From positions 1 to 23,769 of the IMG/VR virus record IMGVR_UViG_3300032309_000905: a stretch of 23,769 nucleotides of DNA, one strand, 5' to 3'. Of the stretch, positions 3,201 to 21,116 are shown one piece after another (the first letter of the stretch is position 1; the number at the start of each line of letters is the position of its first letter). Source of the stretch: a virus. A program made the translations under genes and the position numbers. Below the pieces are notes generated by a model. That model was given only the letters and a program-made list of their open reading frames with translations, was not told the DNA's origin and searched no databases.

Positions 3201-6200
3201 TTACTCCCTTACCAATGATGAAAATAGAACATCGTATGCAGATTTAGCACTAGCATTTGTTGACGCTAATTCTTTTAATCTAGAAATAACATTAACTTTT
3301 AACATATCTTTATAGTCTTGAGAATTAGCATTTGAGCCAAAGGCTGAGTCTCTTATAGAAATATAATTTTCGTATTCTTGAACCATAGAATTTAATACGG
3401 ACCTAGTATTAGGTTGTATGTCTCTAAATTTAGGATCATCAAGCATTAAACGCAAGTCTTGATAAGCTTTTAGTTTTTCAACTTTACTTGCTGCGCCTTT
3501 ACCCAATTCTATTTGTAATAAAGGTCTTACGCCTTTAAACTGTGTAGACCAAGTATCCCATTGATCTTTAAGCATACGACGGTATGAATCAGAAAATGCA
3601 GTTTTTAAACTAGTATCAAGTTCATCTTTTTTAGCATAATACTCTTGTTTATCTTTTGCAGTCTGTACCTCTGATAAGAAATCTGTAAGAGTCTTATTGA
3701 CTTTAAGTCCTGATTTCTGAAGTAACTTGTATGCGTTGAAATCAAAATCACCAGATTGTGGAATCAAGAAAGAAGCACCTTGAGGATACTTCTTCATAAG
3801 TTCAGGATTCTGATTTATCCAGTTAGCAGCACTTTCTACCGGAGCAATTTTTGCTACTGTAGTTTTATCAGATTCTGAAATTGTATAAGGCATTTGATCT
3901 GGATAATTTTTTATCCACTCTTTTGTGGTTTTATCAATATCAAAATTATTAGCTGATAACATTTGATTAAATACTTGCTTGTAACTGGTAGCACCATTAT
4001 CTCTAACCCATTTAGCCATATCTGACTTTAAAGTTATTTGAGGAGATGCAGGAGCAAAGAAACCAAAAGCAAAACGTAACATCAATACAGTTAATGTAGA
4101 GGATTGCAATTTATCTTGGTAATCAGCAAGTTCACCTTCGGTTGGTGCAACTTCTAATCCAGTTGCTGGGTCAATTTTAGGTTTTAACCCGTGACCAGTA
4201 GCCTCAAGATAGGTTGCTGCCTTGCGATAAGCAGAAGCATATTGAGAATTACGTTCATCTCGATTATAAGCTTGCAATGCTCGGTTAATATGTGATGGCA
4301 ATATTGCAGAAATTAAAGGTTGATCTACGCCGTACGATCCCAGCAAATAACTTTCAAGATCTTTAACTTGAGGTATAGCTGCTCCAACAAAACTTAATGG
4401 AACTGCTGCTAAAGGACCAGCAAATGTAGGAAACAATGAATCAGGGTTTAAAGATGGTGTAATCATCTTCAACTTAGCACCAAACTCTAATGGTGCAGGA
4501 ACTTTAAAGGCATCTTTCCAGCCAAATGCGTCAGTAACCCTAGACATTACAGAGTAAACAGGTGCTAAACCTGGATAAAAGAAGTATTGATCTCCGTTAT
4601 CATCTGTTTGTACAAAGCCAGAGTGTGAAATACCTTCGTAAGTTAATGATGCACGAGTTAATGCTTCTGGATTATAACGAAGAGTACGACCTACGCGGCG
4701 ATAAAAGTCTTCTGTAGCACGGTAGAACCGTGCAAAGTTACGAATAGACATAGAAAGTTGGCTGCGAACTTGAGGATTATCTACATAAGACAATACTCTG
4801 TTCTTTGCAAGGTCTTCTGCTATACCAATAATTTGTTTTTTAGCATTAGTTTCTGCCTTTATTAAATCTTCACCAGTTTTTCCAGCAGTTGCTTTTTCAA
4901 TAAATGATTTTTCAAAGCCTGTTTCATCCATAGTTTTACGAATATTGATTATGGCATCATCTACTAATGGAACTCTAGATAATCGGGCGTTTGCTGCACC
5001 CATAATATCCCAGCCTTTATCCATAATACCATTAGGGAAACTACCGCTATCTAGTACTGGTATAAGAGTTGGACCTGAAATAAATTCAGGGGCAAGATCA
5101 AACTGACCTTCTCTTGGAATATGGGTTAAATTAATTCCCTCAGAGTTAACGGAGATATTTCCGTCTTTATCTACTTTGCGAACTTGGCTTAATAAATCTG
5201 TATTGATATCACCATTACGTTTACTAAAGTATGGTCTTACTGAATCATAAATTGCTTCAGCGTGACGTTGTGTAGTTACACCTTTTTTAGTATATAGTTC
5301 AAAACGAGCAAGATCTTTTGGTGAAAGACCATCTAAATACTTGCGGATATTATTAATAGCATCTACTCGATCAATCTTAGGATCTAAATTTTTAATAGCT
5401 AAAGATCCAAGATCAGAGTTAGCATTAACAGCAATAGACATTAACCAAGATACTCGGTTTTGTTGGTTTATTACTGGATTAAAATTATCAAATGAAGTAC
5501 CGGTTTGTTGTTTATATTTAATACCGTCTACTTCAAATGCTTCTACTTTGCCATATTTAGATACATCTTCTGTAACGTTTAAATATTGACTAGCACCACG
5601 AAGGGAGTTTTTTCCACCTTCGGATACGGCTTCTGATAAAGCGTCCATATCACCAAGTAATGTATGCTCAGATATTATCTCAGCCCCACGTTTATCTAAT
5701 TTTTGGCCTAGACCATCCTCACGAACTGCCCTGGCTTGAATAGCCCGAACAGCATTAACATTGCCTTTATCAATTGCTCTAGCAATTTCATCTTGATATT
5801 TAGCAATATCGTTTTTGTTAACAAATTTATTTATGAAACCTAAGTTTCCATCTTTCTTTGCTAATTCTAATCTTTTAGAAAGAAATTTACCTTTAACAAT
5901 TCCCCAAGGAGAATCACCAATAGCAACGTGAATACCTAGATCTTCTGCTGCGTTACGGATAACGAAACGAGGACCAGCAAGAGTATAAAATACCCAGTTA
6001 GATGTTATTTTATCAGCCCATTTTTTATAGTTAGGGCCAAGCATCCTAGTAAATAATGCGCCTTGACCAGCATAACTATCAAGATCCATAACTGAAGGAA
6101 CTGAAATACCAGATGACAATTGCCAATCTAGTACTGCTAATTCTTGTCCATCAAAATTTGCTGGATTATAAGAAACTGTTGTTTCTTTACCAGTTAAAGG

Positions 6201-7898
6201 ATCAACTTCTTTTTTAAGAATAGTTGGAGCATAGCGTTGTTTTTTAGCAAACTGTTGTCCAAGTTGAACTAAACCTGAATCAGACTTATTCCACCCGCGA
6301 ACTTCAGCAAGTGTTCCCCAAATACCTTGAAATATTTGACGCTTTTGTCCTTCATCACCAGCAGCAAAAGCTTCTGAAATAATTTTTGAATGGTATCTAG
6401 TATTACCCAAACGCGCTAATTGATATACTTTACTAGCTGCATCAGGACTATTAACATCGAAAAAGTTATTTGCAAAATAAGGAACTGTTGCAAATTTTTG
6501 GGCAAAACGATCTACCTTGCCTTGAATCTGGTTTAATCCTAAACGGATAGAACCATCTTGTTTAAATTTGCCAACTGCTTTTTCTGCTTTACCTATTGCT
6601 TCAGCATTTTTACCTAAATTAGTAATAACCGTTTCAGGAGTTGCGCCAATGCCATAAAGGTTGCGAACTAAAGTTTGACCAACTTTATCAATATTAAGAA
6701 ATTTATTACCGGTAGTTAATGCTGCAACGCGAGTTTTGCGAGCAAGGTCTAGTTGAGGAACTAAAGGAGTTTTACGAGCAGCTTGTCCTTTAAGTATAAA
6801 AGTTGTGTCTTGCACATTCTTTAAATAGTTACTTGCAGTAGGGGCATCTTTAACACCAGCGCGAATAAATTCATCTACTGATGAAGGACCAAACTCAGGA
6901 GCTAAACGTTTTAATTGGGTTGATGCTTTTTCCATTGCAGCAAGATCGCCTGCTTTACGGGCTTTAGCCAAGCTATCTAATTCAGATCCATATACATTAA
7001 AAAAGTTTGAAACTTTAGGATTAGAAAATACGCGATCTACTTGTGCTTCGTTATTTATAGTACCAAATAATGAACGACCATAAGTCTGTTGTTCTTTACC
7101 CATAACATTATAAAGTAACCAGTCACCAGCATCATAGGCTTTTTTGGCTTTACCTAAAATAAGAGTTGGATCTGCAAATATACGATATGCGGCATCTACT
7201 GTACCAGAAATACCTTTGTATAAAAAGCCTGAACCTTCTAAAGATCCTGGCAATAATAGGTTTGCTAATTGACGTCCTGGAGAATACTTTGCTGCTTGAA
7301 CAGCATCTAAAGCATCTTGAAATAACGGGTCTTTATTTTGTGCAGCATCTGCTGCAATCTTCTTTTCTTCTTCAGTTCCATTAATTGCAATATCAGAAAG
7401 GCGTTGACCTTGAGCTACTTTAGTTGCAACTGAAATATAATTATTACCAAATTTTTGTTTAGCATCAGCAATACGACTTGGGCTAAATACATTATCGCCT
7501 TTGTCGTTTGCTATTTCAAATGCTTTACCAATATCAACATTTTGATCTAATGCAATAGCGCCTGTGCGATATAGGCGGGTCATAAAATCTGATACTTCGT
7601 TTAATGCTTTAAAAGGAGCAGCAATAACATTTTTAGTACTTTGACCTAAGTAATGAAAAGAATTACCTAACCAACCGCGTTTTGCTGCTAATTGTGGATC
7701 TTCTCCACCAAACATAGCAACGTGAGCATTTTGTTGATCTTGTGGCAATGAAGCAAAAGTTTGTTGTGCGTACTCTACAGGCATAGCTAATAGGTTACGG
7801 TGTGAATCTACTAATTTACCCAAGCCATCTATTTGTGATTGCTCGGCAGGAGTAAGTCCTGCTTGTGCAGCAGCAGCTTTAATATTTATACTAGCCAC
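3201..7898 (-). CDS. Giant virion-associated protein (1565 aa), likely internal/DNA-ejection protein
   Basis: The protein is 1565 residues, the largest in the window, and mainly helical. Its N-terminal half is Ala/Lys/Gln-rich. A central part holds a hydrophobic segment with WVFYTLAGPRFVIRNAAEDLG. A later helix-rich part contains MSIRNFARFYRATEDFYRR, followed by two hydrophobic stretches (around LFPTFAGPLAAVPLSFVGAA and LTVLMLRFAFGFFAP). The C-terminus is highly charged. Size, hydrophobic patches and position resemble internal virion proteins that podoviruses eject to build a channel through the cell envelope. I found no polymerase, lysozyme or ADP-ribosyltransferase motif by eye. The start is GTG at 7898, overlapping the preceding TAG by one base, with AGAGG at about 6 bp. 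The role is inference; the gene is certain. Confidence 0.6.
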   Translation of the reverse strand: MASINIKAAAAQAGLTPAEQSQIDGLGKLVDSHRNLLAMPVEYAQQTFASLPQDQQNAHVAMFGGEDPQLAAKRGWLGNSFHYLGQSTKNVIAAPFKALNEVSDFMTRLYRTGAIALDQNVDIGKAFEIANDKGDNVFSPSRIADAKQKFGNNYISVATKVAQGQRLSDIAINGTEEEKKIAADAAQNKDPLFQDALDAVQAAKYSPGRQLANLLLPGSLEGSGFLYKGISGTVDAAYRIFADPTLILGKAKKAYDAGDWLLYNVMGKEQQTYGRSLFGTINNEAQVDRVFSNPKVSNFFNVYGSELDSLAKARKAGDLAAMEKASTQLKRLAPEFGPSSVDEFIRAGVKDAPTASNYLKNVQDTTFILKGQAARKTPLVPQLDLARKTRVAALTTGNKFLNIDKVGQTLVRNLYGIGATPETVITNLGKNAEAIGKAEKAVGKFKQDGSIRLGLNQIQGKVDRFAQKFATVPYFANNFFDVNSPDAASKVYQLARLGNTRYHSKIISEAFAAGDEGQKRQIFQGIWGTLAEVRGWNKSDSGLVQLGQQFAKKQRYAPTILKKEVDPLTGKETTVSYNPANFDGQELAVLDWQLSSGISVPSVMDLDSYAGQGALFTRMLGPNYKKWADKITSNWVFYTLAGPRFVIRNAAEDLGIHVAIGDSPWGIVKGKFLSKRLELAKKDGNLGFINKFVNKNDIAKYQDEIARAIDKGNVNAVRAIQARAVREDGLGQKLDKRGAEIISEHTLLGDMDALSEAVSEGGKNSLRGASQYLNVTEDVSKYGKVEAFEVDGIKYKQQTGTSFDNFNPVINQQNRVSWLMSIAVNANSDLGSLAIKNLDPKIDRVDAINNIRKYLDGLSPKDLARFELYTKKGVTTQRHAEAIYDSVRPYFSKRNGDINTDLLSQVRKVDKDGNISVNSEGINLTHIPREGQFDLAPEFISGPTLIPVLDSGSFPNGIMDKGWDIMGAANARLSRVPLVDDAIINIRKTMDETGFEKSFIEKATAGKTGEDLIKAETNAKKQIIGIAEDLAKNRVLSYVDNPQVRSQLSMSIRNFARFYRATEDFYRRVGRTLRYNPEALTRASLTYEGISHSGFVQTDDNGDQYFFYPGLAPVYSVMSRVTDAFGWKDAFKVPAPLEFGAKLKMITPSLNPDSLFPTFAGPLAAVPLSFVGAAIPQVKDLESYLLGSYGVDQPLISAILPSHINRALQAYNRDERNSQYASAYRKAATYLEATGHGLKPKIDPATGLEVAPTEGELADYQDKLQSSTLTVLMLRFAFGFFAPASPQITLKSDMAKWVRDNGATSYKQVFNQMLSANNFDIDKTTKEWIKNYPDQMPYTISESDKTTVAKIAPVESAANWINQNPELMKKYPQGASFLIPQSGDFDFNAYKLLQKSGLKVNKTLTDFLSEVQTAKDKQEYYAKKDELDTSLKTAFSDSYRRMLKDQWDTWSTQFKGVRPLLQIELGKGAASKVEKLKAYQDLRLMLDDPKFRDIQPNTRSVLNSMVQEYENYISIRDSAFGSNANSQDYKDMLKVNVISRLKELASTNASAKSAYDVLFSSLVRE

Positions 7899-11228: not shown

Positions 11229-13091
11229 TTAGATGAACTGTGTGTCCTTCTCCGCAAGTAGTTCATCGATGTTGACTACTACTCGTTTTTGTCTTTCATA
11301 ACTTGATAGGAATGGATTATTCATATGATGCTTTGCATACTGTCCGTAGTTAAGCATCTCTCTTGCTCTGATCTCACAGAACCAAAGAGCCATTACCATA
11401 TCGGTCTTACCCTTAGTAGTCGGAGACCAAGTTATCAATTGCTCGATTAAAGCCTTGACGTTCTCAGTTTGATCACTAGGTAAATGTATTAAGTTATCTC
11501 GATGGTGTTTGCCATCAGCTAATTGCTTTGTACCAAATAGGGTGGACATAGATGCCACACCGAAACCAGAGTCCCATTTATTAGAACCGGTATGGTGTTC
11601 TTTAAGAACTACACCGCGAGATGCTAAGTGCATTTTGATACCTTCGTCTTGGGTTAAGAAAGCCTGGAACGCGTTCTTCTCGACGATCCATTCACTAGGT
11701 TTGTAAAGATCCGTCCAGTCAAAAATGAGTTGCCTAATTTGTGCCGGAGTAGGTCGAGTAATCTTATGAGCGTCCACAATATAACGCTTGTGGCTGACGC
11801 GATCAATAGCATAACAAATAACAGCAGTGTCACCAACCATAGCAGGATCAAGGCCACAAATGAAAGTGAATCCATTAAGGTCTTTAGGATGACCTGGATA
11901 ACCCGCATTTAAAGCTCCCGACTTTCTCATACCATCAATAGATCCTCTAACACATACCGGATCAAATATGGCGTCATCTGAAATATCTTGTTGCTGATAA
12001 ATTAAAGCCCAGGTGGAAGCGTCCATAGATTGACGTTCGTTAAATAGGTTGCGACCATTCCATCTTGGGTATAGGCCGTCTTCGTTCTTTTGATCTTCAC
12101 CTTGGCCGTCAAATGGTTGATCAGATGCTGGCCATAATGTTTCCCACTTCTCAGGGGATTCATCTGTTTGTAAGAGCGCTGGCATAGCTAGATATTTCCA
12201 AGGAACTAAACCGCCTGGATATCTATCGGGGTTACGCAACTCTCGATATAGATCAACGGATGCTACGCGGGTTCCGATTACGATTAACTTACCTGTAGGG
12301 TTAAGACGGGACCGGACATCCTGTGTTAACCACTTGATTTGACGTTCAAAATCATTTGCGTTACTTAAAGTAACTGCGTCGTCGATGATAATCATATCTG
12401 CACGTTTACCGTAGATCTGACCACCGATACCGACTGCTTCTATGTTGGGATCCTTCTCAGAGGATTCTCTAAGCTCATCACCAAAGGTAATACGGGTGGC
12501 TTGCCACGAAGCGGATTTGCTATTAAAACCTACGCCAGCAGCGTATGCTTGCTGCAGATTCTCATACATAGGATGAGTTAATCGTTGTTTGATGGCGTAT
12601 AGAAAGTCTGCTGCAAGACGCTGGGTCTGAGAGACGATCAAGACTCTAAAGTTAGGATTTTTACAAACCTGCCAGGTTACGTAGTCAACGGTTATTGTAA
12701 TTGACTTCGCGTGGTTTGGCGGGATGTTAATTAAAATTCTGTTATCGGCTAGGCCTGCTTCCCACTTCATAGCGGGGTGTAGCCAAGAAGGTTCCCGACC
12801 CTCAATTACATCTACCAAGTTTTGCTGGTGGGGGAAGGTTCTTTGATTTAGGAACCGCTCACGGAACTCAGCGAATGAGATGTCGTGGACATCACCGGAT
12901 GCAAAGACTTTGTCTTTTAAACCTAGGCGGGTGCGATCTACTTTATCGGAGAATACTTTATCGGTGCGACGATAGTACTCATAGGTCTTCATCGACTTAC
13001 CGGCTGAACCGCAAGCCTGCTCGATGGTCATACCTTGCGCGACGCAACTTAGGATGATTCGTTTAGCTATATCTGCTGAATTTTCGGACAC
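11229..13091 (-). CDS. terL: Terminase large subunit (packaging ATPase and nuclease)
   Basis: The protein is 620 aa. Residues 1-50 form a helix-turn-helix-like segment (MTIEQACGSAGKSMKTYEYY), resembling a small-subunit DNA-recognition domain. The ATPase follows: a Walker-A variant at about 122-131 (NIPPNHAKSI), Walker B at 232-238 (DMIIIDD) and a GTR coupling motif at about 273. The RNase-H-like nuclease has acidic residues in GLDPAMVGDTAV (D415), WIVEKNAF (E471) and KTDMVMAL (D564). It powers DNA translocation into the prohead and cuts the concatemer. The start is GTG at 13091 with AGGAG at about 6 bp. It is the first late gene after the control region. No separate small subunit was found in the window. 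Confidence 0.93.
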   Translation of the reverse strand: MSENSADIAKRIILSCVAQGMTIEQACGSAGKSMKTYEYYRRTDKVFSDKVDRTRLGLKDKVFASGDVHDISFAEFRERFLNQRTFPHQQNLVDVIEGREPSWLHPAMKWEAGLADNRILINIPPNHAKSITITVDYVTWQVCKNPNFRVLIVSQTQRLAADFLYAIKQRLTHPMYENLQQAYAAGVGFNSKSASWQATRITFGDELRESSEKDPNIEAVGIGGQIYGKRADMIIIDDAVTLSNANDFERQIKWLTQDVRSRLNPTGKLIVIGTRVASVDLYRELRNPDRYPGGLVPWKYLAMPALLQTDESPEKWETLWPASDQPFDGQGEDQKNEDGLYPRWNGRNLFNERQSMDASTWALIYQQQDISDDAIFDPVCVRGSIDGMRKSGALNAGYPGHPKDLNGFTFICGLDPAMVGDTAVICYAIDRVSHKRYIVDAHKITRPTPAQIRQLIFDWTDLYKPSEWIVEKNAFQAFLTQDEGIKMHLASRGVVLKEHHTGSNKWDSGFGVASMSTLFGTKQLADGKHHRDNLIHLPSDQTENVKALIEQLITWSPTTKGKTDMVMALWFCEIRAREMLNYGQYAKHHMNNPFLSSYERQKRVVVNIDELLAEKDTQFI

Positions 13092-13796: not shown

Positions 13797-13826
13797 TTGA
13801 CCTGATAGGGGATCGTCCCTTACTAT
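13797..13826 (+). promoter_or_regulatory. Sigma-70-type early promoter of the rightward operon
   Basis: TTGACC (13797-13802, five of six to consensus) and TACTAT (13821-13826, four of six) are 18 bp apart. They lie 45 bp before the first early ATG at 13871, which has AGGAG at 13860. The spacer contains an imperfect dyad (GGGA-TCG-TCCC) that could bind a regulator. The predicted leader would be short, about 35 bases. Confidence 0.6.
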
Positions 13827-13870: not shown

Positions 13871-13984
13871 ATGAACGCCAAATGTAAACAATGCGGGCAG
13901 GAATTAGATTTACTAACTGCCTTCACTAAGTATCAAATCTGCGGTAAATGCACCCGTGCAAATCATAGGAAGGCAATGAAATAA
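13871..13984 (+). CDS. Zinc-ribbon microprotein (37 aa), first early gene
   Basis: Starts at ATG 13871, 7 bp after AGGAG. The 37-residue product starts MNAKCKQCGQELDLL and has a second Cys pair in YQICGKCTRANHRK. The two CxxC knuckles about 16 residues apart form a textbook zinc ribbon, and the C-terminus is basic. Such small proteins usually bind nucleic acid or a host protein. Being first behind the strong promoter suggests an immediate-early, perhaps host-takeover, role (inference). Its TAA overlaps the next ATG (TAATG). Confidence 0.65.
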   Translation: MNAKCKQCGQELDLLTAFTKYQICGKCTRANHRKAMK

Positions 13985-14262
13985 TGAAGCACTATGAAAT
14001 CAAATTATCGTTTCAAACTTACAGAGATTTAACTGCTGAAGAATTATCTAACCTGGAAGGGCATTTACTTCTCCAGATTGAAGAACCAGCGAACTCAAAT
14101 CAAGAAGATGAAGACTATGAAACTACCGCGATTAACTTCTCAATTCAGCAATTTGATGTAGATCTAAAATGTTGCAAACACGATAAAGATCCAGATTGTG
14201 ATTGCTGTAATGCCGTTTGCCCTGATTGCCAGGACGACGATTATTATCTAAATCAGGCTTAG
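13984..14262 (+). CDS. Acidic Cys-rich small protein (92 aa)
   Basis: Coupled by TAATG to the 37-aa gene. The N-terminal two thirds are an alpha/beta-looking acidic domain (MKHYEIKLSFQTYRDLTAEE, then INFSIQQFDVDL). The last 30 residues are Cys/Asp-rich with the Cys cluster in CCKHDKDPDCDCCNAVCPDC, then an acidic DDDYYLNQA end. The cluster probably binds a metal. The family is not recognised. It belongs to the early gene set of small metal-binding proteins. Confidence 0.6.
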   Translation: MKHYEIKLSFQTYRDLTAEELSNLEGHLLLQIEEPANSNQEDEDYETTAINFSIQQFDVDLKCCKHDKDPDCDCCNAVCPDCQDDDYYLNQA

Positions 14263-14274
14263 TGGCGGGCTATC

Positions 14275-14294
14275 GCTCACCCTCACGGGTGGGC
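14275..14294 (+). promoter_or_regulatory. GC-rich hairpin between early genes
   Basis: GCTCACCC (14275-14282) pairs with GGGTGGGC (14287-14294) around TCAC, with one T-G wobble, in the 76-bp gap before the next gene. No T-run follows, so it is more likely an mRNA-stabilising or attenuating hairpin than a full terminator. Confidence 0.4.
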
Positions 14295-14338
14295 GGTGGC
14301 ACTCTCCTAAACTGGTGAGTGAGAAGGAAGGCGAGCAA

Positions 14339-14644
14339 ATGGAAATACAAGAATATAACGGCTGGTCTAATCGTGAAACTTGGGCAACCAATCTCTGGTT
14401 GACCAACGATTATGGAATGACCAAGGATCTTGAGATTTACTTTCAAGAACTCCATAAGGAAGGCGAACCAACCACTCCAGAAATCTTCCGCGATTTTACG
14501 GAGTATATAGAGAACTATGTCGGGGAGTTATTTGAGTTTGAGAACCTGAACCCAACCACCCACTCAATGCAGTGCGATATTGGATCACTTTATCGGGTGA
14601 ACTGGCGCGAGATCGCTGAAGGATTTAAGGAGGCTTTGGTCTAA
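14339..14644 (+). CDS. NGWSNRETW-motif phage protein (101 aa)
   Basis: Starts at ATG 14339 with AGG about 7 bp upstream. A possible GTG at 14315 is inside the leader and less likely. The N-terminus EYNGWSNRETWATNLWLTND is a pattern I know from a conserved small phage and prokaryotic protein family of unknown function (NGW-NRETW ... LWL-ND). The rest is acidic and helical (DFTEYIENYVGELFEFEN) and ends NWREIAEGFKEALV, with Trp residues spaced as in that family. Its stop forms TAATG with the next gene. Confidence 0.65.
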   Translation: MEIQEYNGWSNRETWATNLWLTNDYGMTKDLEIYFQELHKEGEPTTPEIFRDFTEYIENYVGELFEFENLNPTTHSMQCDIGSLYRVNWREIAEGFKEALV

Positions 14645-14790
14645 TGAGATCTAAAACTTATTACCAGGTGAGGAAGATCGTGAGGATCGCCTTCTGGCTC
14701 TCCTTGCTTGCTGGCTTGTATCTGATCTCTACCAGTTTCTGGTGGAATGGTGCGGGCTGGTGTGTGGGAAGTTTGAAGGTGTGCCAGTAA
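14644..14790 (+). CDS. Single-pass membrane microprotein (48 aa)
   Basis: Forty-eight codons start at the overlapping ATG 14644 and end at TAA 14788. A basic N-terminus (MRSKTYYQVRKIVR) precedes one hydrophobic span (IAFWLSLLAGLYLISTSFWW). The short C-terminus NGAGWCVGSLKVCQ carries two Cys. The layout predicts an inner-membrane protein, N-terminus inside by the positive-inside rule. It could be a holin-like, superinfection-exclusion or host-membrane protein. No family can be named. Confidence 0.6.
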   Translation: MRSKTYYQVRKIVRIAFWLSLLAGLYLISTSFWWNGAGWCVGSLKVCQ

Positions 14791-14830
14791 AAAACGGACA
14801 TAAAGGACAAGCTTTTGGTGGCGTTCTATG

Positions 14831-14858
14831 CCATTCTTCCAGAGGTGGGGGAGAATGG
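14831..14858 (+). promoter_or_regulatory. Hairpin in 140-bp early intergenic gap
   Basis: CCATTCT (14831-14837) pairs with AGAATGG (14852-14858), extended by TCC/GGG inside. It is followed by TGTAGTAT, which could be an extended -10, but no matching -35 box is clear. A second small dyad, AGAGCG-AA-CGCTCT (14891-14904), precedes the next gene. The gap 14791-14930 holds no gene that I can support. Confidence 0.35.
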
Positions 14859-14930
14859 TGTAGTATCTTACCAACAGGTGAGAGAGAGGGAGAGCGAACG
14901 CTCTACCTTAATTACTGATAGGAGAAGGTA

Positions 14931-15380
14931 ATGACAGATCTAGACATCTACGAGGTTGAGTATTCTTGCTCTCCTGGTGGCGTTGATAAGTGGGAAATAC
15001 AGGAGAGAGAAGGCGATTTCTTTCAGGGTGATTTTGATACCGCAGAAGACGCAATCTCTTACGCCTTGTTTAAGTTTGACGGAAAGGAAATTAACTTAAA
15101 TGTTAAGAGCCTTAAAACCCTTCAGACTGAAGAGAAGAAGCAAGTTAAAGAGGAAATCCTGGAGAAAACCAACGCAATTTTGACTGAGTATACGAAATTA
15201 GTTTCTCGGTTCTGGGATCTTTACGAAGAGATAGACCAGGAAGAGGCAGATCTAATCAACGAGGCAGGGGCAGATAAGTGGTTTAAGCACGCCTTTACTA
15301 TGTCCCTTGATGAATTATGGTTTGAGGCTGGCAACTGGGAATTAACCAGAGAAGATCTAGGAATGGAAGGAAATAAATAA
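14931..15380 (+). CDS. Acidic early protein (149 aa), function unknown
   Basis: ATG at 14931 follows AGGAGAAGG. The N-terminal 55 residues look like a small alpha/beta module (DIYEVEYSCSPGGVDKWEIQ, then DTAEDAISYALFKF). A long charged helix follows (about 65-105, TEEKKQVKEEILEKTNAIL) with coiled-coil potential, and then a Trp-rich acidic C-terminus (DELWFEAGNWELTRED). No catalytic motif is seen. It is the longest protein of the early run before the lysis-like gene. Its TAA overlaps the next ATG. Confidence 0.55.
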   Translation: MTDLDIYEVEYSCSPGGVDKWEIQEREGDFFQGDFDTAEDAISYALFKFDGKEINLNVKSLKTLQTEEKKQVKEEILEKTNAILTEYTKLVSRFWDLYEEIDQEEADLINEAGADKWFKHAFTMSLDELWFEAGNWELTREDLGMEGNK

Positions 15381-15565
15381 TGAAAGAGTTAGAGCAATTC
15401 TTGAATGTAGAAGCCGAATGGGTGTTTGAGCGGTTGATTGAGTGCGGCTTTGATAAAGGCAACGGGGCAGACCGCGCCTACTATCAGGGCAGGATTGATC
15501 AACTGGCACAAGTAAGAAGGTTTTTAGGTCAGCCTCAAATTATGAAAGAGAGGGCAAGTAAATGA
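15380..15565 (+). CDS. Small helical early protein (61 aa)
   Basis: Begins at ATG 15380 by TAATG coupling and ends ATGA-coupled to the next gene. The product starts MKELEQFLNVEAEWVFERLI, has a GFDKGNGADRAYYQGRIDQL middle and a basic end (KERASK). It reads as two helices with a Gly/Asp/Asn turn. It resembles many small phage proteins of unknown role, and no family is assigned. Coupling on both sides supports it as a real gene. Confidence 0.55.
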   Translation: MKELEQFLNVEAEWVFERLIECGFDKGNGADRAYYQGRIDQLAQVRRFLGQPQIMKERASK

Positions 15566-15771
15566 GCGAGAAAACCCCAGTTAATAGAGAAGAAATAGAG
15601 ACGATATTAGAGAGCCAGGAAAGCTTTAACGCCTACCTTGAGGTGGGCGGAGAGGCTGGTATGGCTCTGGGTCTAATCAATTTTATCTTCTGGCTAGAGG
15701 GAGATGAAGCAACAGATGAAGAATGTCTAGAACTAATAGAGAAAACTATTCTCTATTTTAACCACAGATAG
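15562..15771 (+). CDS. Small acidic helical protein (69 aa)
   Basis: ATGA overlap with the preceding gene. Content is acidic and helical: REEIETILESQESFNAYL, then a hydrophobic core (GMALGLINFIFWLEGD), then ECLELIEKTILYFNHR. It looks like a compact globular helical protein, not a membrane protein, because the hydrophobic stretch is short and flanked by acid residues. The function is not recognised. Confidence 0.55.
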   Translation: MSEKTPVNREEIETILESQESFNAYLEVGGEAGMALGLINFIFWLEGDEATDEECLELIEKTILYFNHR

Positions 15772-15781
15772 GAGAGAGAGT

Positions 15782-15844
15782 ATGAACCAGGTTTTGTGCG
15801 GGGACTGCCTACAAGATATAAAGATTTGTGGGTGCGACAAATGA
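15782..15844 (+). CDS. 20-aa four-cysteine microprotein
   Basis: A 20-codon ORF begins at ATG 15782 with AGGAG about 8 bp upstream. Cysteines are at positions 6, 9, 16 and 18 (CxxC then CxC), enough for one zinc site. Its TGA overlaps the next ATG as ATGA, placing it as a translational lead-in to the 47-aa zinc ribbon. It could be a true micropeptide, or a leader whose translation opens the next start. The good ribosome site and the Cys spacing favour a product. Confidence 0.5.
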   Translation: MNQVLCGDCLQDIKICGCDK

Positions 15845-15984
15845 AGAAGTTTATCTGTAAATCCTGCGGGTGGGAGATAACTAACCCTGTCTGGTGGGAT
15901 ATAGCGAAGGATTACGAAGGCAATTACCTTTGTGATGATTGTGAAATGAACCTATCAATACTAGAGAGAGAAGGCGCAAGATAA
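15841..15984 (+). CDS. Zinc-ribbon protein (47 aa)
   Basis: ATG at 15841 is chosen over an upstream in-frame start because it has the ATGA overlap. The N-terminal CKSCGW and the later YLCDDCEMN give two CxxC pairs about 23 residues apart. Between them lies an aromatic stretch (PVWWDIAKDYEGNYL), typical of small phage zinc ribbons. The C-terminus is a charged helix. It is likely a nucleic-acid or protein-binding adaptor. TAATG couples it to the next gene. Confidence 0.6.
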   Translation: MKKFICKSCGWEITNPVWWDIAKDYEGNYLCDDCEMNLSILEREGAR

Positions 15985-16256
15985 TGAACGCAATACAAGA
16001 TATAAATATAACTGGCTCACGCCACGAGGAAATGAGTTGGAAACGGTATATTTATTTTGAACATAGAGGGGAGAGTTATAGCGTTCTATTATTTTGGGAC
16101 GAGTTTAACGGCTATGAACTCTACTGGCTCAACGAGGAGAGCGGTCTATTAAATAGCCGTAAAGCTCCTGAGTGGGTTATTAACTGGAATGAGGACGATT
16201 ACGAGGGTATGTCCTTAGAACATTACCTTGATGAACTAACTTTTGAAAGGAAATAA
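15984..16256 (+). CDS. Aromatic-rich early protein (90 aa)
   Basis: Coupled on both sides by TAATG. The protein is rich in Trp and Tyr, with KRYIYFEHRGESYSVLLFW and NGYELYWLNEESGL looking like consecutive beta strands. A helical acidic end follows (GMSLEHYLDELTFERK). This suggests a small beta-sheet domain. No known family is recognised. No signal peptide or membrane span is present. Confidence 0.55.
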   Translation: MNAIQDINITGSRHEEMSWKRYIYFEHRGESYSVLLFWDEFNGYELYWLNEESGLLNSRKAPEWVINWNEDDYEGMSLEHYLDELTFERK

Positions 16257-16369
16257 TGAGCAACTTAATAAACGAACTAATAGAGTTGGCTGAGGAATTG
16301 GTTGAACTGACCACCGACCAGCCCACTATCAACGACCTAAAGAGAAACGAGGAGGAGAACGCATTATGA
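16256..16369 (+). CDS. Acidic helical microprotein (37 aa)
   Basis: Thirty-seven codons run from the TAATG overlap at 16256 to an ATGA overlap at 16366. The sequence is an amphipathic acidic helix (NELIELAEELVELTTD) followed by a short polar end with EEEN. The heptad-like leucines could form a dimeric coiled coil. Nothing is known to me about such a protein. Start and stop both couple to neighbours. Confidence 0.5.
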   Translation: MSNLINELIELAEELVELTTDQPTINDLKRNEEENAL

Positions 16370-16503
16370 ATTGGACAGTATGGGTGGGAGGTAGTGAGGT
16401 TAATGACCGCCCACTTACCTACCAGCAAGCGAGAGATATTGCTAAAGCGTGGAGAAATAAAGGTTATGATGATGTAAAAATGGAAAGGGTATTGGAATGG
16501 TAG
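16366..16503 (+). CDS. Small WVGGSEVND-type phage protein (45 aa)
   Basis: Starts MNWTVWVGGSEVNDRPL. A helix YQQARDIAKAWRNKGY follows, then a strand DVKMERVLEW. This beta-alpha-beta layout with a WVGG-EVND start is one I have seen in many short phage proteins of unknown function that appear in early or middle operons. It is ATGA-coupled upstream, and the following gene starts 7 bp inside its end. Confidence 0.6.
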   Translation: MNWTVWVGGSEVNDRPLTYQQARDIAKAWRNKGYDDVKMERVLEW

Positions 16504-16667
16504 AGCCACGCTATTTATCCGGTGATGAGTTTGCCCTGAGTGGGGGCTACGAAGAGTTGGTTAATTGTAATGAGTGTGATGTTGAGTTTGACCAAGTGGA
16601 ATACCGGTCAGAGACCTGCTCTGATTGCGAGGATAAGAGAGTAATGAGAGAGAAGGAGAGCAAGTGA
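16497..16667 (+). CDS. Zinc-ribbon protein (56 aa)
   Basis: ATG at 16497 lies within the end of the previous gene, with AAAGG upstream. Cys pairs in CNECDVEF and CSDCEDK are about 17 residues apart, with an acidic linker between them, and a charged helix follows (KRVMREKESK). This is a small zinc ribbon of unknown partner. Its TGA overlaps the GTG of the next gene (GTGA). Confidence 0.6.
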   Translation: MVEPRYLSGDEFALSGGYEELVNCNECDVEFDQVEYRSETCSDCEDKRVMREKESK

Positions 16668-16747
16668 GTAAAGAGTGTGATTGTGATAACTTAGATCAAG
16701 ATGTATCGGGATATACCTGCTACAAATGTTATGAGAAGGGGAAGTAA
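16664..16747 (+). CDS. 27-aa zinc-binding microprotein
   Basis: Twenty-seven codons start at GTG 16664, overlapping the previous TGA, with AAGGAG six bases upstream. The product starts MSKECDCDNL and continues to TCYKCYEKGK, giving CxC and CxxC pairs about 12 residues apart. The TAA overlaps the next ATG. The strong ribosome site and coupling make translation likely. The function is unknown; it is a third very short metal-knuckle in the same operon. Confidence 0.5.
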   Translation: MSKECDCDNLDQDVSGYTCYKCYEKGK

Positions 16748-17013
16748 TGAGTAATGTATTAGAGCTACGCAACGGGGCATTAAAGAGAGTGATATTTTAT
16801 GAGGTATCAGACGCTCAAAACATAGCCATATGGGGCGGAGAAAGCCCGTCAGAGGCGTTAAAATGGTATAGGCAAAGCCCTCTGGACAGTAAGATTTATG
16901 TCCAGGAGTGGATTACAGATGACGAGGACGCGAGAGAGGTGTCTCCCCAGATTGAGATCACTTCTATTGTATTATCTACTATCGCTAACTGTATGGAGAG
17001 GTGGAGTAATTGA
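16747..17013 (+). CDS. Early small protein (88 aa), function unknown
   Basis: Starts at the TAATG overlap. The sequence has alternating strands and a helix (ALKRVIFYEVSDAQNIAIWG, then SPSEALKWYRQSPLDS, then YVQEWITDDEDAREV), ending SIVLSTIANCMERWSN. It reads as a compact alpha/beta protein. The family is not recognised. Its TGA overlaps a TTG start downstream. Confidence 0.55.
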   Translation: MSNVLELRNGALKRVIFYEVSDAQNIAIWGGESPSEALKWYRQSPLDSKIYVQEWITDDEDAREVSPQIEITSIVLSTIANCMERWSN

Positions 17014-17231
17014 GCAAAATAGAGCGGAGAATAGAGACCGCTAAATTACAAGCAGTTCGCCGGAGAAATTATCGTAGAGCAAGGGATAGAGCGTTAGCCC
17101 GTTTGAGTAGAGATTACCCAAATGTATACCGCGCCTACCTTGAGGAAGAGGTTGAAGCCGATGAGCAAATGGGTAAGAAGTGGTTTGATATTACTGGTCG
17201 CACTAAGTCTACTGATAGTAGGACAAGATAA
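17010..17231 (+). CDS. Arginine-rich basic protein (73 aa)
   Basis: TTG start at 17010 shares the preceding TGA as TTGA, with AGGTGGAG just upstream. The N-terminal half is strongly basic (AKLQAVRRRNYRRARDRALA) and probably helical. The C-terminus is polar (KKWFDITGRTKSTDSRTR). The charge suggests nucleic-acid binding. The last 71 bp overlap the transglycosylase gene in another frame. Confidence 0.5.
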   Translation: MSKIERRIETAKLQAVRRRNYRRARDRALARLSRDYPNVYRAYLEEEVEADEQMGKKWFDITGRTKSTDSRTR

Positions 17232-17583
17232 ATTATTTCCACCACCAGTAGGGAAAATCCCTGATGGTGTTATCTCAAATAGGAAGGCAACACAAGATGA
17301 AAAAAACTATAACAAGAAGCTCGCAAAGAACTACGCTCAGGCTGGTTTTGGGTGGCAAGGAAGAGAGTGGGAGTGCCTTAAGTCCCTTTGGACCAGTGAG
17401 AGCAGGTTTGATAACTACGCAAAGAACCAACGAGGATCAAGTGCTTACGGAATTGCTCAACTCCTTGGAGAGACAGATAGCAGAGCTGAGTATCAAGTCT
17501 TGCGAGGTCTTAAATATATTTCTAAGCGATACCAAACACCTTGTAAGGCAAACAAGTTCTTTCTCAAGCATAGATATTACTGA
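17161..17583 (+). CDS. Membrane-anchored SLT-type lytic transglycosylase (140 aa)
   Basis: From ATG 17161 the protein has a basic N-terminus, one hydrophobic segment (about residues 8-21, GLILLVALSLLIV) acting as signal or anchor, a linker, and an SLT-like domain from about residue 66. Key signs are WECLKSLWTSESRF with putative catalytic Glu80, SAYGIAQL, and a LKYISKRYQTPC end. The pattern W-C ... LW-ES ... AYGI-Q ... YI-RY-TPC is that of actinobacterial resuscitation-factor-like transglycosylases that cut the glycan of peptidoglycan. It may aid lysis, or act in local wall opening. A longer start 13 codons upstream is possible but would overlap more of the 73-aa gene. It is followed by TGATG coupling to the methyltransferase. 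Confidence 0.75.
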   Translation: MSKWVRSGLILLVALSLLIVGQDKLFPPPVGKIPDGVISNRKATQDEKNYNKKLAKNYAQAGFGWQGREWECLKSLWTSESRFDNYAKNQRGSSAYGIAQLLGETDSRAEYQVLRGLKYISKRYQTPCKANKFFLKHRYY

Positions 17584-18574: not shown

Positions 18575-18957
18575 AAAGACACCCCATCACTTACCTTGAG
18601 GAAACCTACTAACTTGGTGCGACTAGCTCTATTACCAAACTCTGTTGTGTTAGGTAGCCACTTATCTTCCCACGCAGGGGCTGGTAGTTTGCTTAGATCA
18701 AATCCCCATATGCCTTCAGGTGTTGCGTTGATATACCAAGGTGCGAGTGAGCGGATACCTGCCGCCTCAACTAATGCTTGATACTTCATCTCTTCAATAA
18801 GTAATTCAGGATAGTGTGTCTTGCGTGATTTTAATTCTATAAACATCTTATGTTCTAGGGATACACAATCCCAAGTGTCAAACTCTTCACTCTTCTCAAG
18901 GTCTGAGTAATGAAACTCTTTTAAGTATTCAAATAACTCTGGCTCTTTTAACTCCAA
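18571..18957 (-). CDS. PD-(D/E)XK-like nuclease (128 aa)
   Basis: Starts at TTG 18957 with GGTGAT about 5 bp upstream, 10 bp inside the end of the sigma-like gene. Residues about 26-46 contain WDCVSLEHKMFIELKSRK, with Asp30 then Glu41-x-Lys43, the D ... ExK metal-binding triad of the PD-(D/E)XK nuclease superfamily. Residues ELLIEEMKYQALVEA could provide the following helix. Small nucleases of this type process recombination or repair intermediates, or cut host DNA. The C-terminus (WEDKWLPNTTEFGNRASRTK) does not identify a subfamily. Catalysis is inferred from motif spacing only. Confidence 0.55.
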   Translation of the reverse strand: MELKEPELFEYLKEFHYSDLEKSEEFDTWDCVSLEHKMFIELKSRKTHYPELLIEEMKYQALVEAAGIRSLAPWYINATPEGIWGFDLSKLPAPAWEDKWLPNTTEFGNRASRTKLVGFLKVSDGVSL

Positions 18958-19583
18958 GGTGTATCACCGCCAAGTAAATCTTGTAGCTTACGCATAGCGT
19001 TGGTGCATCTACGATCAGCAGTAGAGACAGCCACCTCAAGGTATTGTGCTATCTGATTAAGTGTCCAGGCGTCGTGGTATCTAAGCTCTAGTATCTTGGC
19101 TTCATCAACATCTAACTTCTCATATGCTTTCTTAATATCAAGGAGGATAGCAATTAGATTACCGCTCTCAGCAGGGGCTGATGGTTTCTTTGGTGTGCCA
19201 TCGTTGATCATATCTTGTGCCTGTTGTAAGACAGTCCCGTGCAATACTGATTGGATTACAAAGGGTAGTAGTTGTGCGATAGTGGTTGTCTCATAAAAAG
19301 ATTCATCGCTGGTGTGGTAGCCAGCCTTGCTTGCCTTCTCTTTGCGGGCATAGCGTTCAGCCATACGCCTCATCTGGTAGGCAATACGCTTCTCATTACG
19401 TAAACGCTTATTAAGATCCGGTTCATTTAACTGCTCAAGGAAGTGTGCGTTCTTAGATAGAGACCAGGCGTAGCACTCCTGCATTACATCTTTCTTATCT
19501 ACCCACCCTTTAAACCTGCGGACTATAACTGTGGCTACGCTAGGTACTAGCTCATAGAAAGTCGGGTGTAAATCTTCAGTCAT
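18948..19583 (-). CDS. Sigma-factor-like transcription regulator (211 aa)
   Basis: Residues about 28-42 (WVDKKDVMQECYAWSL) look like the sigma region 2 entry helix with its DV-QE signature. A basic helical segment follows (KRLRNEKRIAYQMRRMAERY). Residues about 155-205 are a region 4 type helix-turn-helix: KLDVDEAKILELRYHDAW, TLNQIAQYLEVAVSTADRRC, and a final KLQDLLGG helix. Sigma-70/ECF-like proteins recruit RNA polymerase to phage promoters. This one may drive the late operon (inference). A linker of about 50 residues between the two parts is degenerate. ATG at 19583 lies within the end of the 44-aa gene. It could instead be a plain HTH regulator. Confidence 0.6.
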   Translation of the reverse strand: MTEDLHPTFYELVPSVATVIVRRFKGWVDKKDVMQECYAWSLSKNAHFLEQLNEPDLNKRLRNEKRIAYQMRRMAERYARKEKASKAGYHTSDESFYETTTIAQLLPFVIQSVLHGTVLQQAQDMINDGTPKKPSAPAESGNLIAILLDIKKAYEKLDVDEAKILELRYHDAWTLNQIAQYLEVAVSTADRRCTNAMRKLQDLLGGDTPWS

Positions 19584-19710: not shown

Positions 19711-20107
19711 TAGGCCACTTGTTTTCAAGAACCATAATTGCTATGGCAGAATAGTTAAGTAGATCAATAAAAGAATCTCTAAGTGATTCGTTCTGTGGGT
19801 CAACGCCCTTATCAATTAAGTTATTTATTCTTGCAATCTTATCGTGCATACGCACACGCAATCCGTTGATCGGACCACCTGGTGCTTTAGATATATTGGT
19901 TGGACCGTAATCCATTTGTTTTCTTAGAAGTAAATTACCTGCTTCATCTAACAGTTCTCTTACTGTATCTATAAACTCTTGGCTTATGCCTTGGTCGGTG
20001 GCAGTTTGATCAGCAGTGTTTCGTTGGCGTAATCTACTTTGATTACTAATATCCCGTAGGTCGCCAACCATTTGGCTAGTTCCATCAGGTCTGAGTTGCT
20101 CATACAT
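19703..20107 (-). CDS. Nmad1/DUF1599-like protein (nucleotide-modification associated or NTP-pyrophosphatase-like)
   Basis: The C-terminal 90 residues contain NLLLRKQMDYGPTNI, then GLRVRMHDKIARINNLID, then NESLRDSFIDLLNYSAIAI. The K-x-x-DYG-x-N ... K-x-R-x-NL ... E-S-x-x-D-x-x-x-DL-x-Y pattern is that of DUF1599/Nmad1, a helical family near MazG-like pyrophosphatases and found beside DNA-hypermodification genes. The acidic E and D residues would coordinate metal. The first 35 residues are low-complexity. Starts at 20146 or 20107 are possible; GGGGG about 6 bp before 20107 favours the latter (134 aa). It overlaps the TOPRIM gene by 8 bp. Confidence 0.6.
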   Translation of the reverse strand: MYEQLRPDGTSQMVGDLRDISNQSRLRQRNTADQTATDQGISQEFIDTVRELLDEAGNLLLRKQMDYGPTNISKAPGGPINGLRVRMHDKIARINNLIDKGVDPQNESLRDSFIDLLNYSAIAIMVLENKWPND

Positions 20108-20747
20108 TTGGAACCCCCAATAGGTGCTTTGTTGCATCCGCACCATTAGCTAGGTAATAGTCCGTAATGTCCATATTAGGTGGTAATTGTACTATTGTTC
20201 CGTTGATCACCTCCCCTGCGACACGCCGCGAGAACTCCGCCCCTGGATTAGTACCATCTTCCTTAACATCATTATCACCAACGATATATACAACATCATA
20301 TCCGTTAAGTAATTTAGCAAAGTGATCCTTCCAAGCTGCAACACCAGGAACACCTACTGCTGGCATACCAAGTACACCTGAAACTATTACAGTATCTAAC
20401 TCACCTTCACAAACTACAATCCTTGATGACAACTTACAGATATCAGCAACGTTATATAGGTGCGCCTTCTGACCTAGAGGTGAGCCATACTTAGGCTTGC
20501 CCTCATCTAATCTTCTAAACTTAAAACCAACGCAAAGACCAAGCGCAGTTATGTATGGTATTGATAACCAACCCTCTTGATATTCGTGGCCTGCTATCGG
20601 ATTAGTGACTGTGCCTAAAGAATAAAGAGCAGCAACTTCCTCAGAGATTCCACGTCCGTTTAGATAGGCGAGAGTTTCCGGAGTTATTGCCTGAGCGTAT
20701 TGGTTCGCCGCTACCAGCAAGGATTTCATCTGCTCTTTTGACTGCAT
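20100..20747 (-). CDS. DNA primase, TOPRIM part (215 aa)
   Basis: Contains a helical start (TPETLAYLNGRGISEEVAAL), the YLNGRG segment typical of DnaG-type primases, and a TOPRIM fold: VVCEGELDTVIVSGVLG (Glu114, Asp118), then VYIVGDNDVKEDGTNPGA (Asp158, Asp160). The Glu and DxD bind the metal ions for RNA primer synthesis. No zinc finger lies in this frame; that part is in the neighbouring ORF, offset by one reading frame and overlapping by 107 bp. It begins at ATG 20747 with a weak GAG site. It could be a separate subunit, or the second half of a frameshifted primase. Confidence 0.75.
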   Translation of the reverse strand: MQSKEQMKSLLVAANQYAQAITPETLAYLNGRGISEEVAALYSLGTVTNPIAGHEYQEGWLSIPYITALGLCVGFKFRRLDEGKPKYGSPLGQKAHLYNVADICKLSSRIVVCEGELDTVIVSGVLGMPAVGVPGVAAWKDHFAKLLNGYDVVYIVGDNDVKEDGTNPGAEFSRRVAGEVINGTIVQLPPNMDITDYYLANGADATKHLLGVPNV

Positions 20748-21018
20748 CTTTAAACTCTAACCCTTCCTTATGTGTAATTATATTAACGCCATTACCTGCT
20801 ACTCCGCAGGTGTGGCAGAAGTAAAGGTTGTTGACTGTATCAATTACTGCTGACTTTCTAGTGTCGTTATGAACACAACATCTAACTGATACGTTCTTAC
20901 CTTCTCTAACTTCTCCTCCGTAAAACCGAACTATTACTCCAATGGGTACTGAGTTCGCAGAGGTTCCGCTAAAACTCTTGCGTTGCTTCCTACTTCTGGA
21001 CCAGTCTTGTGTTGACAA
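20641..21018 (-). CDS. DNA primase, CHC2-type zinc-finger part (125 aa)
   Basis: TTG start at 21018 preceded by AAGGAGG six bases upstream, a perfect ribosome site, inside the previous gene. Residues 41-75 hold VSVRCCVHNDTRKSAVI and LYFCHTCGVAGNG: C47-x2-H50 and C68-x2-C71, the zinc-finger arrangement of DnaG-like primases that reads the template. EGLEFKDAVKRADEIL follows, a helix also seen in primases. The tail after about residue 100 is Ser/Asn/Arg-rich. The TOPRIM domain starts in the +1 frame inside this gene's end, so this either acts as a separate subunit or feeds a frameshift. Confidence 0.75.
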   Translation of the reverse strand: MSTQDWSRSRKQRKSFSGTSANSVPIGVIVRFYGGEVREGKNVSVRCCVHNDTRKSAVIDTVNNLYFCHTCGVAGNGVNIITHKEGLEFKDAVKRADEILAGSGEPIRSGNNSGNSRLSKRTWNL

Positions 21019-21116
21019 TTACAGTCCTCCTTACATTTCTTGTGCATATTAGCAGCGCGTTTGAACTGACCAATCTTATTCAGCTCTCCACCGGACTTAC
21101 ATAATTCGCAGATCAT
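20934..21116 (-). CDS. Cys/His-rich small protein (60 aa)
   Basis: ATG at 21116 in ATGA overlap with the preceding gene. The product reads MICELCKSGGELNKIGQF, then MHKKCKEDCNCQHKTG. The C-x2-C ... H-x3-C ... C-x-C-x-H arrangement is a metal-binding cluster, and I recall similar small proteins in actinobacterial phages. The last third overlaps, in another frame, the start of the CHC2 primase ORF for 85 bp. That overlap begins right at the CHC2 ribosome site, so this gene's codons double as that signal. Confidence 0.6.
   Translation of the reverse strand: MICELCKSGGELNKIGQFKRAANMHKKCKEDCNCQHKTGPEVGSNARVLAEPLRTQYPLE

What the first reader, a model, noticed from the sequence alone, without database searches (positions are those of the whole stretch)
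13871..16747. Rightward operon of coupled tiny metal-knuckle proteins
Within 2.9 kb at least five coupled genes of 20, 27, 37, 47 and 56 codons each carry two close Cys pairs (CxxC/CxC), and a 92-aa gene has a Cys-rich tail. Nearly all join by ATGA, GTGA or TAATG overlaps behind one strong promoter. Such a density of separate zinc-ribbon microproteins suggests a coordinated early function, for example host RNA polymerase or ribosome takeover, rather than unrelated fillers. Coding status is seen; the shared role is inference.
Basis: partly seen in the sequence, partly recalled or inferred. Interest (0 to 1): 0.6.

Follow-up and report, generated by a model that had tools for sequence, protein, structure and literature searches.

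The report
Hypervariable zinc-knuckle microprotein operon in actinophages
A freshwater bacterial virus packs many tiny proteins, each apparently folded around a metal ion, into one fast-changing gene block that also carries known anti-restriction genes in its relatives; this suggests a swappable toolkit against the host rather than one coordinated machine.

Summary
Five coupled genes of 37, 20, 47, 56 and 27 codons, each with two CxxC/CxC pairs, and a 92-codon gene with a Cys-rich tail lie at 13871-16747. All have homologs in related IMG/VR phages, with Cys conserved and pN/pS of 0.12-0.39 where it could be estimated. Related operons average 6.5 such microproteins per 10 kb, against 0.33 in a random IMG/VR sample and none in the two Streptomyces relatives tested. 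They fall into about 50 sequence clusters. In one family Cys and His swap at ligand positions, which points to zinc.

Relatives include cultured Planktophila phages E7 and F5, so the host is probably a freshwater actinobacterium. The operon diverges from the terminase gene behind a positionally conserved promoter whose spacer palindrome differs between lineages. Relatives carry ArdA, ArdC-N or WhiB genes in the same block, and E7 couples ArdA directly to an H-family microprotein.

Best reading: an early, hypervariable counter-defence and host-takeover island of zinc-stabilised microproteins with separate targets. A single coordinated RNA polymerase or ribosome function is not shown, and gene turnover argues against it. 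HF1-group haloviruses are a precedent for CxxC-microprotein richness.

The parts
13797..13826 (+). Promoter-like site TTGACC-18-TACTAT with palindrome AGGGGATCGTCCCT in the spacer (putative operator)
   Evidence: Motif at this distance from terminase in 22 of 61 loci, 0-3% in neighbouring bins; palindrome differs by lineage
13871..13984 (+). A37, Cys4 microprotein, 37 aa
   Evidence: 8 loci, Cys invariant, pN/pS 0.23
13984..14262 (+). B92, 92 aa, conserved core plus CC-H-rich tail; in relatives the knuckle is C-terminal, N-terminal or absent
14339..14644 (+). C101, DUF7249 family, not Cys-rich
   Evidence: PF23907 33.3 bits against cutoff 27
14644..14790 (+). D48, probable small membrane protein, most widespread gene of the operon
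   Evidence: 45 loci; membrane nature read from the sequence
14931..15380 (+). E149, unknown
   Evidence: 5 loci
15380..15565 (+). F61, unknown
   Evidence: 6 loci
15562..15771 (+). G69, unknown, found in the window only
15782..15844 (+). H20, 20-aa short form of the H family, CxxC and CxC
   Evidence: Homologs in 18 loci and in cultured phages E7/F5 (24-25 aa, E about 1e-8); C/H ligand swaps
15841..15984 (+). I47, Cys4 microprotein, 47 aa, treble-clef-like model
   Evidence: 19 loci, Cys invariant, pN/pS 0.33, pLDDT 71.8
15984..16256 (+). J90, unknown
   Evidence: 13 loci
16256..16369 (+). K37, unknown, found in the window only
16366..16503 (+). L45, unknown
   Evidence: 4 loci
16497..16667 (+). 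M56, Cys4 microprotein, 56 aa
   Evidence: Homologs in relatives and in E7/F5 (E about 1e-10), pN/pS 0.39
16664..16747 (+). N27, Cys4 microprotein, 27 aa
   Evidence: 6 loci; window/L060 pair pN 0.07, pS 0.62
16747..17013 (+). O88, unknown; WhiB stands in this slot in one subgroup of relatives
   Evidence: 34 loci; slot comparison
17010..17231 (+). P73, unknown
   Evidence: 32 loci
17122..17583 (+). Q153, transglycosylase-like, end of the conserved block (true start may be downstream)
   Evidence: phrog_12661 E 7.5e-13; 30 loci

Best explanation
The region is a hypervariable, probably early counter-defence and host-takeover operon of an actinobacterial tailed phage. It is transcribed divergently from the terminase and other structural genes, from a promoter that seems to carry a lineage-specific operator. 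Much of its gene stock is made of microproteins of 20-60 residues from many different families, each folded around one metal ion, most likely zinc. Inferred mechanism: a four-ligand zinc site lets a very short chain hold a stable binding face, so the phage can carry and swap many cheap proteins, each blocking or redirecting a different host or defence factor soon after DNA entry. Shown here: coding status, ligand conservation, clustering, turnover, promoter position, and co-location with anti-restriction genes in relatives. Inferred: zinc rather than another metal, early timing, and the anti-host role of the microproteins. Not shown: any target.
For: Purifying selection with invariant Cys. C/H ligand swaps in the H family. 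About 20-fold enrichment over random viral DNA. 50 clusters in 48 loci. ArdA (PF07275, E 8.3e-14) and ArdcN (E 1.5e-5) in the operon protein set, with homologs in 8 and 10 loci of that region; 17 of 49 loci with at least 2.4 kb upstream carry one. In cultured phage E7 an ArdA gene (E 9.7e-9) is coupled to the H-family gene. Anti-restriction genes lie in the corresponding arm of Streptomyces phages Immanuel3 and Abafar. ArdA is an early gene of Rhodococcus phage WC1 (PMC10986025). Positionally conserved divergent promoter with changing palindrome. Precedent: lambda Orf73, an early C4-zinc protein that acts on RNA polymerase (PMC9239242).
Against: No expression, metal or target data. Co-location with ArdA does not prove shared function, and the window itself has no recognised anti-restriction gene. 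The Streptomyces relatives have the anti-restriction genes but no Cys4 microproteins, so the two are separable. Structure models are weak (pLDDT 71.8 and 57.8), with no significant fold match.
Confidence: 0.6

Rival explanations
1. Transcription takeover: several of the microproteins act together on host RNA polymerase or its sigma factors, with the phage sigma factor (and WhiB in relatives), to redirect transcription. This is.
For: WhiB sits in the operon of relatives; the phage encodes a sigma factor at 18948-19583; I47 resembles Gin below cutoff (20.3 bits against 27) and M56 matches the Gin chain at E 0.78; H-I47 coupling is exact in 20 of 20 adjacent pairs; lambda Orf73 precedent.
Against: The families turn over independently, which does not fit parts of one complex. 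The Gin similarity is mostly the CxxC pattern. No direct evidence of any RNA polymerase contact.
Confidence: 0.2
2. Accessory fillers: small genes gained and lost neutrally, with zinc knuckles common only because very short proteins need a metal to fold.
For: High turnover; some genes found in the window only (G69, K37).
Against: Purifying selection, conserved slots over deep divergence (H and M56 in E7/F5) and roughly 20-fold enrichment over other phages.
Confidence: 0.12
3. Metal handling or nucleic-acid roles: the Cys-rich proteins buffer zinc, or bind DNA or RNA as part of phage replication or regulation, including the operator at the operon promoter.
For: The B92 tail has seven Cys and a His, metallothionein-like in look; the I47 model resembles GATA-type fingers; a putative operator exists.
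Against: Most families hold just four ligands, right for one structural site; fold matches are not significant.
Confidence: 0.08

Closest known systems
CxxC-motif microproteins of HF1-group haloviruses (Serpecor1, Hardycor2; PMC7230728)
   Same: Many proteins under 100 aa with CxxC motifs (14 of 23 and 12 of 21 CxxC proteins), unevenly distributed, function unknown or poorly understood
   Different: Archaeal myoviruses; the passages read do not describe a divergent promoter, anti-restriction genes or turnover of the set
TraR / lambda Orf73 family (PMC9239242)
   Same: C4-zinc protein under 75 aa of a mobile element; lambda Orf73 is early and reprograms host transcription
   Different: None of the window microproteins scanned in Pfam matched the TraR/DksA zinc finger
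Gin, inhibitor of sigma-G (PF10764, PDB 5n7y)
   Same: Small zinc-finger anti-sigma factor; best named Pfam hit of I47
   Different: Below the curated cutoff; only the first knuckle of I47 aligns
ArdA/ArdC anti-restriction genes of actinophages
   Same: Same genome arm and operon block in relatives
   Different: The microproteins themselves are not ArdA or ArdC homologs
Lambda ninD and ninF products
   Same: Small Cys4 proteins in a run of small genes
   Different: Two in a whole genome rather than five in 3 kb; a NinF match to A37 is far below cutoff

Membership tests
Actinobacterial phage lineage of Planktophila phages E7/F5 | Related terminase and shared gene order around it | tested here: met
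   Terminase 45-46% identity over 98% of the query; H, M56 and Q153 homologs upstream and divergent
Gin anti-sigma family (PF10764) | Score at or above the curated cutoff | tested here: not met
   20.3 bits against 27
Gin anti-sigma family (PF10764) | Binds and inhibits a sigma factor | not testable with these tools
   Needs biochemistry
TraR/DksA zinc finger | Match to the family profile | tested here: not met
   Absent from the Pfam lists for the window microproteins scanned
Zinc-binding one-domain microproteins | Four conserved Cys/His ligands in two close pairs | tested here: met
   C/H swaps in the H family
Zinc-binding one-domain microproteins | Bound zinc | not testable with these tools
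   Needs purified protein
Phage anti-restriction / early host-takeover region | Known anti-restriction genes in the block | tested here: inconclusive
   Present in relatives; none recognised in the window itself
Phage anti-restriction / early host-takeover region | Early transcription | not tested
   Inferred from position and from phage WC1 (PMC10986025)

The most novel reading that the evidence does not exclude
This phage lineage keeps a large, shared and constantly reshuffled stock of zinc-knuckle microproteins, down to 20-25 residues, as dedicated inhibitors of individual defence or host factors, expressed from an early promoter whose operator changes between lineages, so that related phages differ in both arsenal and control.
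Probability: 0.35. Interest if true: 0.8.

Novelty: new variant of a known kind. Interest (0 to 1): 0.55.

Why it matters
If right, the block is a ready-made library of minimal zinc-folded proteins directed at bacteria that are abundant in freshwater, and the same lineage has two cultured phages, so the idea can be tested. It would also show how small a conserved, separately encoded protein can be: the H family is 20-25 residues in the window and in both cultured phages. Genes this short are easily missed by annotation, so such blocks may be undercounted.

Tried and rejected
Consensus promoter scan: fewer sites than shuffles, replaced by comparison across relatives. Rfam and tRNA scans: nothing. 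PHROGs, Pfam and PDB searches of the microproteins: only weak zinc-finger hits. Terminase scan of GTDB genomes for a host or provirus: no relative. Structure of M56: pLDDT 57.8, not used. Profile-profile comparison: I47 and M56 align at 90.5% probability, A37 with either at 26-29%; with patterns so dominated by Cys I do not take this as proof of common descent. A single paralogous family was rejected because of the cluster count, with the reservation that short sequences limit clustering. SNase and E7-type ArdA queries found nothing in the window group, though its own ArdA did. The G2 actinophage record KU886271 was not held.

Full report
What the window is. The record is an IMG/VR virus fragment of 23,769 bases. 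Minus-strand structural genes lead left from a terminase at 11229-13091; a plus-strand operon of small genes starts at 13871; sigma factor, primase and RusA genes follow on the minus strand. The terminase is 45-46% identical to OX376640 and OX376641 and about 42% identical to Streptomyces phages. Those two records are Planktophila phages LanE43AprE7 and F5, cultured on the freshwater actinobacterium 'Ca. Planktophila' (PMC10202952; record names). An actinobacterial host is therefore likely but inferred.

The genes are real. Each has homologs among the 80 loci found by terminase: A37 in 8 loci, B92 in 12, H20 in 18, I47 in 19, M56 in 24 and N27 in 6, counting the window; the M56 and I47 counts include distant look-alikes that share little beyond the knuckle. 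Cys columns are invariant in the aligned I47, M56 and A37 sets. pN/pS is 0.12-0.39; the N27 value rests on one pair and the B92 value on three sequences. H20 is a short form: most relatives have about 44-48 residues, but E7 and F5 have 24-25 residue forms, and L005 and several others have 32-residue forms without the long C-terminal part.

Metal. In the H family the ligand positions change between Cys and His (C..H..C.C, C..C..C.H, and C..C..C.C in the window). Such swaps fit a zinc site better than a disulfide or an iron-sulfur cluster; this is inference from general knowledge of zinc sites. The I47 model (pLDDT 71.8) resembles GATA-like and other zinc fingers, but no match reaches E below 1 in the PDB or below 0.1 among viral models, so the fold is only suggested.

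Density. With one ORF caller applied throughout, operon regions of 48 loci hold 134 Cys4 microproteins in 206 kb (6.5 per 10 kb), and none of these loci has zero. A sample of 62 loci drawn by a random 15-mer has 19 in 580 kb (0.33 per 10 kb), many of which look like chance ORFs. T7, P-SSP7, HTVC010P, Immanuel3 and Abafar have none; lambda has two, at ninD and ninF; F5 has four. The caller is crude and the sample comes from one pattern, so the ratio is approximate.

Variety and turnover. The 134 fall into 50 clusters, 24 of them in more than one locus. Phages with 98% identical terminase share only part of the operon: L007 lacks A37, B92, C101, E149, F61, J90, L45 and N27 by the same criteria. 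The B92 core has its knuckle at the C-terminus in three of ten aligned phages, at the N-terminus in two, and none in the others. Some order is kept: H and I47 overlap by exactly 4 nt in all 20 loci of the second scan where they are adjacent.

Context. A protein of the ArdA family (PF07275, E 8.3e-14) and one with ArdcN (E 1.5e-5) occur in the operon set; their homologs are in 8 and 10 loci of that region, and 17 of 49 sufficiently long loci carry one or the other. E7 has an ArdA gene (E 9.7e-9) directly coupled to its H gene, and an SNase-family gene nearby; WhiB lies in the same block in F5. In one subgroup WhiB stands between I47 and Q153, where O88 and P73 stand in the window. In Immanuel3 and Abafar the matching arm holds an anti-restriction gene. 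In Rhodococcus phage WC1 ArdA is an early gene (PMC10986025). This is why I read the block as early and anti-host; timing in this lineage is untested.

Promoter. A TTGACN-(16-19)-TANNNT motif lies in the 600-800 nt bin upstream of terminase in 22 of 61 loci and in 0-3% of loci in neighbouring bins. In many of these the spacer holds a palindrome whose sequence differs by lineage; mean stem length is 4.28 against a shuffled mean of 3.28 and maximum of 3.76. I infer a regulated promoter. The window copy is at 13797-13826, 44 nt before A37.

Verdict. The richness itself has a precedent in HF1-group haloviruses (PMC7230728), and an early zinc microprotein acting on host RNA polymerase has one in lambda Orf73 (PMC9239242). 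In the papers I searched I found no report of such a block in actinobacterial phages, but the library is limited to open-licence papers, so this is weak evidence of novelty.

Noticed in passing
window 13797-13826: Promoter-like site whose spacer palindrome is replaced by a different palindrome in other lineages; looks like a swapped operator. The repressor is not identified.
   Followed up: partly
window 20934-21116 (-): A 60-aa Cys-rich ORF outside the operon with similar ORFs in L007, L056, L037, L032 and L048.
   Followed up: no
window 14644-14790 (+): D48, a probable small membrane protein, is the most widespread gene of the operon (45 loci); function unknown.
   Followed up: no
window 3201-7898 (-): A 1565-aa protein with no PHROG match, in a position like the 4.9-kb gene of Immanuel3.
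   Followed up: no
window 20100-21018 (-): Primase-like gene apparently split into two overlapping ORFs, as annotated in Immanuel3 gp40/gp41.
   Followed up: no
1800-2400 nt upstream of terminase in relatives (locus regions): A second, weaker peak of the promoter motif (up to 15% of loci), possibly an internal promoter.
   Followed up: no
L016:3245-3424, L037:4245-4418, L083:26954-27127: Another zinc-ribbon protein (Zn_ribbon_8 below cutoff for the E7 copy) recurs in relatives, on the opposite strand from the operon in L016 and L037 and beyond the operon's end in F5 (L083).
   Followed up: no
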